Below, piece by piece: positions 2 to 3,034 of a stretch of 32,743 nucleotides of DNA. Under the pieces are notes generated by a model. The model searched no databases. It was given only the letters and a program-made list of their open reading frames with translations, and was not told the DNA's origin. Positions within the stretch are counted from its first letter, which is position 1; every line of letters starts with the position of its first letter. The stretch is from Planctomycetota bacterium (GTDB lineage Bacteria; Planctomycetota; UBA1135; GCA-002686595). The stretch lies in contig JAPLOE010000275.1 of NCBI GenBank assembly GCA_026692705.1, positions 1 to 32,743 of the forward strand, in the 5' to 3' direction. Made by a program: the position numbers and the translations under genes.

Positions 2-1303
2 ATCATCGTCGCGGCGGTGAGCGCGCCGGTCCCGACGCTCATCGTCGTCGGCGTGCTGCCCTTGGTCGCGATCCCGATCGCCAAGCTCGGCCGGCGCGTG
101 CGCAAGCGCTCGACCAAGTCGCTGGCGAGCCTCGGCGCGTCGGTCGAGGTGCTGACGCAGATGTTCTCCGGCATCCGCACGGTCAAGGCCTTCCGTGCGG
201 AGGAACGCGAGCTCGAGCGCTACCGCGGCGTCAACGAGAGCTACCTGAGCACGGCGATGCGCATGGTGCGCGCCGTGGCGACGATCGAGGGCGCGACGAC
301 GTTCCTGTCGCACTTCGGCTTCGCGGTGATGCTCGTCGCCGTCGGCTGGGGAACGCTGCGTTTCGGGCTGTTTTCGAGCCCGGGCGACATGACCGTGTTC
401 TTCGGCGGCATCGCGATGATCTACACGCACGTCAAGCGCATGACGACGGCGATCAACCACGTGCAGGAGGCCTCGGGCGCCGCCGACCGCCTGCAGGCGA
501 TCCTCGACGAGCGCCCCGACATCACCGAACGTCCCGGCGCGCATCCGGTGACGACGCTCGGCAGCGGCATCCGCTTCGAGGACGTGCACTTCACCTATGC
601 AGGTCAGGACAAGCCCGCGATCGACGGTCTCACGCTGCACATCCGGCCGGGCGAGACGCTCGCGCTCGTCGGAGCCTCGGGCGCCGGCAAGACCACGACC
701 GTCGACCTGATCGCGCGCTTCATCGACGCGAGCACCGGCCGCGTCACCGTCGACGGTCGCGATCTGCGCGAGCTCAAGCTCGACCAGTGGACCGGCATGT
801 TCGCGATGGTCGGCCAGGTGCCGTTCCTGTTCCACACCTCGATCCGCGAGAACATCCTCTACGGCAAGCCGAGCGCGACGCAGGCCGAGGTCGAGGCCGC
901 CGCGCGCGCCGCGCACATCCACGACTTCATCGCGTCGCTGCCGCAGGGGTACGACACGATCGTCGGCGACCAGGGCGCGCGCCTCTCCGGCGGCCAGCGC
1001 CAGCGCATCACGATCGCGCGCGCGATCCTCAAGGACGCGCCGCTGCTGCTCCTCGACGAGGCCACCAGCGCGCTCGACAGCGAGAGCGAGGCCGAGGTGC
1101 AGCGCGCTCTCGAAGGCCTGATGAAGCAGCGCACCGTCGTCGTCATCGCGCACCGCCTCTCGACCATCCGCAACGCCGACCGCATCGCCGTCCTCGACCA
1201 GGGCCGCCTCGTCGAGCTCGGCCGCCACGACGAGCTGCTCACCCTCGGCGGCGCCTACGCCCGCCTGCACGCCATGCAGTTCCGCGAGCCGGCGGGGGCG
1301 TGA
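2..1303 (+). CDS. ABC exporter, permease-ATPase fusion (5' end missing)
   Basis: This is the C-terminal part of a half-size ABC exporter, an inner-membrane pump that uses ATP to move lipids, drugs or peptides. The frame is open to the left window edge, so the first membrane helices lie outside. The first ~150 visible residues are the end of the transmembrane domain, including the long cytoplasmic helices and a coupling-type segment (SGIRTVKAFRAEE). The nucleotide-binding domain follows. Walker A is GASGAGKTT (bases 671-697), the signature is LSGGQRQR (from base 983), Walker B is LLLLDEATSALD, and the switch histidine is in VIAHRLSTIRNADRI. All catalytic motifs are intact. The arrangement fits the MsbA/multidrug exporter group, but the substrate cannot be told from this portion. 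A GTG at 17 is merely internal. Confidence 0.93.
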   Translation: MIVAAVSAPVPTLIVVGVLPLVAIPIAKLGRRVRKRSTKSLASLGASVEVLTQMFSGIRTVKAFRAEERELERYRGVNESYLSTAMRMVRAVATIEGATTFLSHFGFAVMLVAVGWGTLRFGLFSSPGDMTVFFGGIAMIYTHVKRMTTAINHVQEASGAADRLQAILDERPDITERPGAHPVTTLGSGIRFEDVHFTYAGQDKPAIDGLTLHIRPGETLALVGASGAGKTTTVDLIARFIDASTGRVTVDGRDLRELKLDQWTGMFAMVGQVPFLFHTSIRENILYGKPSATQAEVEAAARAAHIHDFIASLPQGYDTIVGDQGARLSGGQRQRITIARAILKDAPLLLLDEATSALDSESEAEVQRALEGLMKQRTVVVIAHRLSTIRNADRIAVLDQGRLVELGRHDELLTLGGAYARLHAMQFREPAGA

Positions 1304-1348
1304 ACGGATCTCTCTTGGGGCGTGGAAGTCCCGCGGTCCGCCTTCGGG

Positions 1349-1618
1349 CTATCGGATGACGCTGCTCCAGTAGTCGGAAACGAGCTTGAAGGCGGCGTCG
1401 AGGTCGAGCGCGCGGACGCGGGCTTGAGCGGCGAGCTCCGGGTAGCGTTCGCGCCGCCAAGGCGCGTCCTCGCGCGCGAAGAGCCTGGCGAGCAGTCGCT
1501 CCATGAGCACCTTCGTCAGCAACGTGTTGATCGGCACACCCGACTGCAGCGACTGCGTCCGGAGCCGATCCAGGAGGGCGCGCCGAAGGGAGTCGGCGTT
1601 CGGGTAGCGGCGCGTCAT
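1349..1618 (-). pseudogene. Internally deleted AbiEii-type toxin remnant
   Basis: An 89-residue reading frame whose ATG overlaps the stop of the upstream antitoxin gene by 4 bp (ATGA), the usual AbiEi-AbiEii arrangement. Residues 1-54 read like the start of AbiEii/AbiGii nucleotidyltransferase toxins (YPNADSLRRALLDRLR, then MERLLARLFAREDAPW). In family members that stretch runs directly into the LKGG nucleotidyltransferase core. Here the core is absent: after W54 (base ~1457) the sequence jumps to a short helical tail ending SDYWSSVIR. Family members are roughly 250-300 residues, so about two thirds is missing, including the GS-type catalytic motif. I infer an in-frame deletion that leaves a catalytically dead peptide. 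It could alternatively be a genuine small protein that binds the antitoxin. The family assignment rests only on the N-terminal half. Confidence 0.6.
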
Positions 1619-2238
1619 CGTTGGGTGCGCGGCGGGACGAGGCGGAGTTTCCGGAGCAGCGCGGTGGGAAGGCCGGCGCGCTGGAGGGCCTTGAGGAGCG
1701 CGGGGCGGGTGACGAGGCCGCGTTCGAGGGCGGACCGGACAGCGCGGGCGAGCTCGTCCTGCGGCACATCCATCGATTGGGCGGCGTCGACGAGCGTGCG
1801 GAGCGGAGTCGTGACGGAGAACCCCTCGCGCGGCTCGAAGTCGGCGCGCGCAAGCTCGTCCCGGTGCAGGACACAACCCGTCGGCGGTTTCTTGCGGAAG
1901 CCCAGCGGCACGGTGAGGTGGGCCTTTTCGGGGAGCAGCAGGGTGAGGCCATGCACAGTGAGCGCCGTCACGTGGGAGGCCACGGCCTGCGGCCGGTCCT
2001 GCGAGTCGCGGCTCCAGAGGGACAGGCGGATCAGCTCATCGTGCGGCGAGACGGGCACGGTGGACAGTCGATAGGTCCCGTGCGCGACGCGCTCGAAGCG
2101 TCCGGTGCCGACGTGGTAGGTCAGGTGCGAATAGCCGTAGCCGGCCGTCGCGGCTTCGCGGCTGGTGAAGTAGCCGCCTTGCGCTTCGGCGACGCCGCGC
2201 AGCTCGAGCTCGGCTTGCTGGTTGGAGCGGTATTCCAT
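1615..2238 (-). CDS. AbiEi-family type IV antitoxin
   Basis: A 207-residue protein with the AbiEi layout. An N-terminal winged-helix domain (residues ~10-60; GGYFTSREAATAGYGYSHLTY, then GRFERVAHGTYRL) binds DNA. A C-terminal antitoxin domain follows, with family-typical segments (ASHVTALTVHGL, HLTVPLGFR, VTTPLRTLVDAA). In characterised AbiE systems AbiEi represses its own operon by binding inverted repeats and blocks AbiEii without contacting it. The ATG at 2238 was chosen because family similarity begins a few residues later. The frame continues upstream, but that part resembles leader DNA. A 17-bp AT-rich palindrome lies 76 bp upstream of the start. The downstream toxin gene is truncated, so this antitoxin may now have no partner here. 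Confidence 0.82.
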   Translation of the reverse strand: MEYRSNQQAELELRGVAEAQGGYFTSREAATAGYGYSHLTYHVGTGRFERVAHGTYRLSTVPVSPHDELIRLSLWSRDSQDRPQAVASHVTALTVHGLTLLLPEKAHLTVPLGFRKKPPTGCVLHRDELARADFEPREGFSVTTPLRTLVDAAQSMDVPQDELARAVRSALERGLVTRPALLKALQRAGLPTALLRKLRLVPPRTQR

Positions 2239-2313
2239 GGTCTTCGGGGGCGGCTCTTGGCGGGCCTGTTCCGAGACAGTGTCGACCCTGCCTTCGCGAC
2301 GCTCAACATGAAG

Positions 2314-2330
2314 CTTCAAAATATTTGAAG
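2314..2330. promoter_or_regulatory. Perfect palindrome, likely AbiEi operator/promoter
   Basis: CTTCAAAATATTTGAAG has perfect 7-bp arms around ATA and stands out as an AT-rich island in GC-rich DNA. It lies between the AbiEi-type antitoxin (minus strand) and the yjdF-like gene (plus strand). On the minus strand TATTTT within it could act as a -10 box. AbiEi antitoxins are known to bind inverted repeats in their own promoter, so self-repression through this site is the natural inference. Confidence 0.6.
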
Positions 2331-2392
2331 TTTCTCGCCGCAGCGGGATGGAGCGTGTTCCGCAGCCAAGGGGCTGGCCAAGGAGGGTGAGC

Positions 2393-3034
2393 GTGGGCAA
2401 GCTCGGGAGCGTGAAGTTGCCGGCGGTGCTGCTCGGGTTGTTCGTGGTGCTGTTCGTCGTGCTGGGGATCGCACCGAGTGACCGGTTGACGTGGGCGCTG
2501 GAGAACGGGCTCGCGTTGGCGGGCGTGGCGTTCCTGATGCTCACGAGGAAGCGCTGGCCGTTGTCGAACGCGGCGTACGTGTCGCTGTTCGTGTTCACGG
2601 CGCTGCACGAGATCGGTGCGTACTACACGTACACGCAGGTGCCGTACGACCGCTGGAGCGAGGCGGCGTTTGGGAGCGCGCTCGGGGAGACGTTCGGTTG
2701 GAAGCGCAACCACTACGATCGGCTCGTGCACTTCGCGTTCGGGCTGCTCGTGGCGCCGGCGGTGCGCGAGCTCGTCGTCGGCATCGCGCGCGTCACGCCG
2801 CGCGTGTCGTTGTGGCTCGCGTTGCAGACGGTGATCTCGTGGTCGGCGCTGTACGAGCTCGTCGAGTGGGGCGCGGCCGTCGTGTTCGGCGGCGCGACGG
2901 CCGAGGCCTACGTCGGCATGCAGGGCGACGTCTGGGACGCGCAGAAGGACATGGCGCTCGCGGCCAGTGGCGCGTTGCTCGCGCTCGCGACTGTGGCGTT
3001 CACGACTCTCCGAAGCGCTAGCTCTTCCCGATGA
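2393..3034 (+). CDS. yjdF: YjdF-like DUF2238 membrane protein
   Basis: A 213-residue inner-membrane protein of the DUF2238/YjdF family, function unknown. Several hydrophobic helices are visible: residues ~7-27, 40-55 and 62-75, then two or three more. Two family-typical motifs are present, HEIGAYYTYTQVPYDRW and RNHYDRLVHFAFGLL, plus the acidic stretch VWDAQKDMALAASGALLA near the end. The GTG at 2393 was chosen because AGGAGG at 2381-2386 sits six bases upstream; a GTG at 2387 would be too close. It runs toward ispF and the two 3' ends overlap by 17 bp. The conserved His and Asp residues suggest metal or ligand binding in the membrane, but no role is established. Confidence 0.85.
   Translation: MGKLGSVKLPAVLLGLFVVLFVVLGIAPSDRLTWALENGLALAGVAFLMLTRKRWPLSNAAYVSLFVFTALHEIGAYYTYTQVPYDRWSEAAFGSALGETFGWKRNHYDRLVHFAFGLLVAPAVRELVVGIARVTPRVSLWLALQTVISWSALYELVEWGAAVVFGGATAEAYVGMQGDVWDAQKDMALAASGALLALATVAFTTLRSASSSR

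What the first reader, a model, noticed from the sequence alone, without database searches (positions are those of the whole stretch)
1349..2330. AbiE toxin-antitoxin locus with intact antitoxin, operator and a deleted toxin
The antitoxin gene, the ATGA coupling to the next gene and a perfect AT-rich palindrome upstream are all preserved. The toxin frame keeps only its first ~54 residues and a short tail, still in frame. This looks like an in-frame internal deletion that removed the catalytic core. The short peptide could be a neutral remnant, or a retained regulator of the repressor-like antitoxin.
Basis: partly seen in the sequence, partly recalled or inferred. Interest (0 to 1): 0.6.

Follow-up and report, generated by a model that had tools for sequence, protein, structure and literature searches.

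The report
AbiE antitoxin beside gutted toxin gene
A bacterial toxin-antitoxin locus kept its antitoxin gene and DNA control site but lost the whole working core of its toxin through one clean, in-frame deletion that a sister species does not have; this is ordinary decay of such a system, shown here unusually clearly.

Summary
The finding holds. Window 1615-2238(-) encodes a complete AbiEi antitoxin. It overlaps by ATGA an 89-codon frame at 1349-1618(-). A sister species (G004 = L019, same flanking genes, antitoxin 92% identical) carries the intact 288-residue AbiEii. The window frame equals its residues 1-54 plus 255-288, with one extra codon at the join: a net 597-bp (199-codon) in-frame deletion that removes all four nucleotidyltransferase motifs. 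Among 199 related genomes no other 89-residue form was found. The upstream palindrome is real: 7-bp arms around 3 bp. It is conserved across six homologous loci, with the arms changing together in one, and occurs once in the genome. The whole locus is an insertion between an ABC transporter gene and a DUF2238 gene that adjoin in another congener. The remnant shows no excess of replacements (dN/dS 0.12, like the antitoxin), so the deletion is recent or the frame is constrained; recency is simpler. I read it as a self-repressing orphan antitoxin beside a dead toxin. In a survey of homologous loci, antitoxin-intact/toxin-broken occurs in 7, both intact in 12, toxin-intact/antitoxin-broken in none. 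A retained regulatory peptide is not supported. An assembly or strain artefact cannot be excluded without reads.

The parts
1615..2238 (-). abiEi: 207-aa AbiEi-type antitoxin with N-terminal winged-helix (AbiEi_4) region, full length
   Evidence: 90-92% identical to sister antitoxin
1349..1618 (-). abiEii remnant: 89-aa frame, net 597-bp in-frame internal deletion
1457..1618 (-). retained N-terminal part, residues 1-54, 91% identical to sister AbiEii 1-54
1352..1453 (-). retained C-terminal part, residues 56-89, aligns to sister 255-288 (81% identical over 255-286)
1454..1459 (-). deletion joint, codons W54-R55 (TGG CGG); both deletion ends in the sister carry TGGC
1615..1618 (-). ATGA overlap of antitoxin stop and toxin start
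2314..2330 (.). operator-like dyad, 7-bp arms with 3-bp spacer, about 76 bp upstream of the antitoxin start, single copy in the genome
17..1303 (+). flanking ABC transporter gene (as seen from the window edge), orthologous and syntenic in sister
2348..3034 (+). flanking DUF2238 membrane protein gene, syntenic in sister; adjacent to the ABC gene in G002 (site without AbiE)

Best explanation
An AbiE type IV toxin-antitoxin operon was present at this site in the common ancestor of this species and its sister. After the split, an internal deletion (net 199 codons, frame kept) removed residues corresponding to about 55-253 of AbiEii. This includes motifs I and II (GG at 58-59, D75, D77), III (K191) and IV (K208-D209-D212), so the product should not be able to bind or transfer a nucleotide. 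Shown here: the deletion, its extent, its frame, the intact antitoxin and the conserved upstream dyad. Inferred: AbiEi still binds the dyad and represses its own promoter, and the overlapping ATGA lets the 89-residue helical stub be translated as an inert by-product. With no toxin the antitoxin is no longer needed for survival, so the locus is most likely in early decay. Any benefit, such as blunting a related incoming AbiEii, would be incidental.
For: Sister locus L019/G004: 288-aa open toxin, same order and flanking genes, N part 91% and C part 81% identical to the window stub. The sister toxin is a bona fide AbiEii (PADLOC 6.4e-84, Pfam PF08843 3.5e-28) and resembles the solved guanylyltransferase-like toxin 6j7o/6j7s. 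Published mutants in each of the four motifs abolish toxicity (PMC3985639). The 89-aa form is unique among 199 relatives. Dyad conserved at homologous loci, e.g. TGTCCAAA-ATA-TTTGGACA in G022, where both arms changed together. Published AbiEi sites are inverted repeats, in S. agalactiae with a 3-bp gap. Locus absent in G002, where the flanking genes adjoin. Remnant dN/dS 0.116 against 0.125 for the antitoxin, and every residue differing from the sister lies at a position where the sister also differs from at least one other homolog.
Against: The genome is a draft (348 contigs, 89% complete) and no reads were available, so the joint rests on one assembly. DNA binding, expression and loss of toxicity were not tested. 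The absence of excess replacements in the stub also fits a frame under selection.
Confidence: 0.83

Rival explanations
1. The stub is a retained working peptide: its N-terminal helices and C-terminal helix bind AbiEi (or another partner) and tune the repressor.
For: The frame is kept, ATGA coupling is kept, and the stub shows low dN/dS (0.116) with no replacement assignable to the window branch alone. A single-sequence model gives an all-helical fold, best mean pLDDT 79.
Against: A random deletion keeps frame one time in three. No AbiEi-AbiEii interaction and no AbiEii effect on transcription in the studied system (PMC3985639). No other genome searched carries such a form. A recent deletion explains the low dN/dS. 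The other four models of the fold scored 60-67.
Confidence: 0.06
2. The orphan antitoxin is actively kept because it neutralises related AbiEii toxins on incoming mobile elements (anti-addiction).
For: Antitoxin intact and constrained (dN/dS 0.125). Antitoxin-only loci recur among homologs. Orphan antitoxins are common in Klebsiella and proposed as anti-addiction modules (PMC7192599).
Against: No close AbiEii partner in the same assembly. Constraint may predate the deletion. Loss of toxin first is expected anyway because loss of antitoxin first would be harmful.
Confidence: 0.12
3. The joint is an assembly error or a minority strain variant, and the species has an intact toxin.
For: Draft assembly; one genome only; a TGGC at both ends.
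Against: The shared word is only about 4 bases, too short to drive a misjoin; the joint carries three bases absent from a simple exchange between the repeats; both flanks are collinear with the sister.
Confidence: 0.07
4. The orphan AbiEi has become a regulator of other genes.
For: An AbiEi mutant in Mesorhizobium huakuii had 116 changed genes (PMC8436566).
Against: The operator sequence occurs once in the genome, at its own promoter, and once in the sister.
Confidence: 0.03

Closest known systems
AbiE type IV toxin-antitoxin system (Streptococcus agalactiae AbiEi/AbiEii; PMC3985639)
   Same: Bicistronic order antitoxin-toxin, winged-helix antitoxin, inverted repeat upstream, AbiEii family N- and C-terminal sequence
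   Different: Toxin lacks motifs I-IV; dyad arms directly flank a 3-bp gap and are 7 bp perfect, about 11 of 14 extended, against 23-bp repeats in S. agalactiae
MenAT systems of Mycobacterium tuberculosis (Rv1044-Rv1045, Rv2827c-Rv2826c; PMC7205606, PMC7319586)
   Same: Sister toxin aligns over residues 1-258 to a solved guanylyltransferase-like toxin (6j7o series; its identity as Rv1045/MenT3 is from my own knowledge); antitoxin autoregulation by inverted repeats
   Different: The mycobacterial toxins are intact; the Rv2827c promoter has four repeats
Orphan antitoxins from decayed TA pairs (Klebsiella survey, PMC7192599)
   Same: Antitoxin kept in original context with the toxin lost
   Different: Here the toxin stub stays in frame and the deletion is mapped against a sister species

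Membership tests
AbiE type IV TA system (functional) | AbiEi antitoxin with N-terminal winged helix and C-terminal domain | tested here: met
   PADLOC AbiEi 9.4e-59 over residues 9-188, Pfam AbiEi_4 3.6e-10
AbiE type IV TA system (functional) | AbiEii toxin with NTase motifs I-IV (hGG-x15-DhD, lysine motif III, +DxxD) | tested here: not met
   All four motifs lie in the deleted stretch; no Pfam match to the stub
AbiE type IV TA system (functional) | Bicistronic operon, antitoxin first, overlapping genes | tested here: met
   ATGA overlap in window and sister
AbiE type IV TA system (functional) | Inverted repeat bound by AbiEi in the promoter | tested here: inconclusive
   Repeat present, conserved and single-copy; binding not testable; no sigma-70-like promoter match
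AbiE type IV TA system (functional) | Toxin inhibits growth, antitoxin reverses it without contact | not testable with these tools
   needs expression assays
Decayed AbiE locus with orphan antitoxin | Intact antitoxin, toxin disrupted relative to a syntenic intact ortholog | tested here: met
Decayed AbiE locus with orphan antitoxin | Relaxed constraint on the remnant toxin | tested here: inconclusive
   dN/dS 0.116, no excess: too recent to show, or constrained

The most novel reading that the evidence does not exclude
The 89-residue helical stub, made of the two ends of AbiEii without its catalytic core, is kept by selection as a small partner that modulates AbiEi, turning a toxin-antitoxin pair into a two-part regulator.
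Probability: 0.05. Interest if true: 0.65.

Novelty: new member of a known kind. Interest (0 to 1): 0.22.

Why it matters
It is a clean case of how a type IV toxin-antitoxin pair decays: toxin first, antitoxin and operator kept. The sister comparison fixes the deletion to within about one codon. The small survey of homologous loci (7 toxin-only losses, 0 antitoxin-only losses) agrees with the expectation that the antitoxin cannot go first. It also shows an annotation trap: Pfam does not recognise the stub, so the locus would be read as a lone regulator next to a hypothetical protein.

Tried and rejected
Independent short AbiEii family: rejected, no other 89-residue form among 199 relatives. 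Chance similarity of the first 54 residues: rejected. Partner toxin elsewhere in the genome: the six other PF08843 matches in the assembly are not close relatives of the sister toxin and no second AbiEi like this one exists. Regulon beyond its own promoter: no second operator copy. Promoter and terminator scans gave nothing. One search failed from a wrong reading frame and was repeated correctly. Structure prediction of the stub gave an all-helical model of moderate confidence with disagreement between models, so no structural argument is built on it. Another species with a similar-looking internal loss, G097 (L031/L064), loses the toxin after about residue 186 and no C-terminus was recognised after that, so it is not counted as a parallel in-frame deletion.

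Full report
Observation. On the minus strand the window encodes a 207-residue protein at 1615-2238 and an 89-residue frame at 1349-1618, overlapping by ATGA. The first is an AbiEi antitoxin (PADLOC PDLC02228 E 9.4e-59; Pfam AbiEi_4 E 3.6e-10). The second matches an AbiEii profile at 1.8e-13, best stretch residues 1-54 aligned to profile 5-56 of 310, with two stretches counted. Pfam AbiEii does not recognise it, because that model covers the core (residues 41-264 of the sister protein), most of which is gone.

The deletion. A search of 199 related genomes found AbiEii homologs in six others, none of them with the short form. In the same-genus genome G004, whose contig appears also to be public as JABWBL010000259.1 (L019; same length, same toxin), the locus has the same two neighbours, an antitoxin 90-92% identical, and an open 288-codon toxin gene. 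Residues 1-54 of the window frame are 91% identical to its residues 1-54. Residues 56-87 are 81% identical to its residues 255-286. The genes differ by 597 bases, exactly 199 codons. At the joint the window reads CCT TGG CGG CGC GAA; the sister reads CCA TGG CTC at the left end and GAG TGG CGC GAT at the right. TGGC is present at both ends, but the window carries three more bases than a simple exchange between them would leave, so the exact mechanism is open. The stretch lost contains the GG (58-59), D75/D77, K191 and K208-D209-D212 of the sister, which fit motifs I to IV defined by Dy et al.; in S. agalactiae AbiEii a mutation in each motif abolished toxicity (PMC3985639).

Setting. In congener G002 the ABC transporter and DUF2238 genes that flank the locus lie about 86 bases apart with no AbiE between them. 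So AbiE most likely sits in an insertion shared by the window species and G004, and the deletion came after they split.

Operator. In operon direction, 76 bases upstream of the antitoxin start, lies CTTCAAA-TAT-TTTGAAG. Six homologous loci carry a dyad with the same 3-base spacer (five with perfect 7-bp arms, G006 with 6 of 7). In G022 the arms have changed together to TGTCCAAA...TTTGGACA, and in L020 and L021 they extend by one pair, CCTTCAAA...TTTGAAGG. The sequence occurs once in the window genome and once in G004, and not in the other five congeners. AbiEi proteins studied elsewhere bind inverted repeats, in S. agalactiae separated by 3 bp. That this AbiEi binds here is inferred.

Age and constraint. 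Between window and sister, dN/dS is 0.125 in the antitoxin, 0.077 and 0.209 in the two toxin parts, 0.116 for both together. If the stub had drifted freely for the whole window branch, roughly 0.37 x 200, or about 74, replacement changes would be expected on that branch (my arithmetic). Only 16 are seen on both branches together. Of 11 residue differences, three changed on the sister side, none can be assigned to the window side alone, and eight are unresolved. At all 11 positions the sister also differs from at least one other homolog. Either the deletion happened in roughly the last tenth of the branch (a rough bound, my arithmetic) or the stub is constrained. I prefer the first because it needs no unknown function and because AbiEii neither contacts AbiEi nor regulates the operon in the studied system.

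Pattern. I scored toxin and antitoxin integrity at homologous loci from an antitoxin-seeded and a toxin-seeded search of the class, plus the loci. Both intact: 12 (G004, G049, G022, G137, G121 twice, G083, G133, G141, G081, G131, G086). Antitoxin intact, toxin broken: 7 (window; G006 with a stop at codon 5; L021 with a stop near codon 113; L020 with only about 20 codons; G015 with none; G097 and G115 truncated). Antitoxin broken or partial and toxin broken or absent: 3 (G010, G046, G012). Toxin intact, antitoxin broken: none. Loci cut by contig ends were left out. The numbers are small, the window itself was chosen for its defect, and the genomes are drafts, but the direction is the expected one.

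Conclusion. The locus is a recently inactivated AbiE system: intact autorepressor-type antitoxin, conserved operator, and a probably inert in-frame toxin stub. Orphan antitoxins are well documented (PMC7192599). The case is clear but ordinary.

Noticed in passing
G000 contigs C128, C188, C226, C133, C207 (L001-L006): Six further PF08843 (AbiEii) matches in the same genome, none close to this one; the pair at C188:6282-6963 is split into two matches with an internal TGA and looks broken.
   Followed up: partly
L011 1501-2358 (G006): Same-genus AbiEii ortholog open over its whole length except a TAG at codon 5, with intact antitoxin upstream; next in-frame start codons are at codons 37 and 39.
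   Followed up: partly
L012 (G010 C20): AbiE ortholog with frame changes in both antitoxin and toxin and an unrecognised antitoxin N-terminus: looks like a full pseudogene.
   Followed up: partly
L026 (G015 C19): An AbiEi homolog without AbiEii is followed instead by a small helix-turn-helix-like frame and a second frame with a nucleotidyltransferase-like motif, possibly another toxin-antitoxin pair.
   Followed up: no
L084 2781-2867 (G002): Congener site without AbiE: ABC transporter and DUF2238 genes lie about 86 bp apart.
   Followed up: yes
window 17-3034: Synonymous divergence from the sister is much higher in the AbiE genes (dS 0.45-0.74) than in the adjacent ABC transporter (0.16), which may reflect expression level, recombination or different ages.
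   Followed up: no
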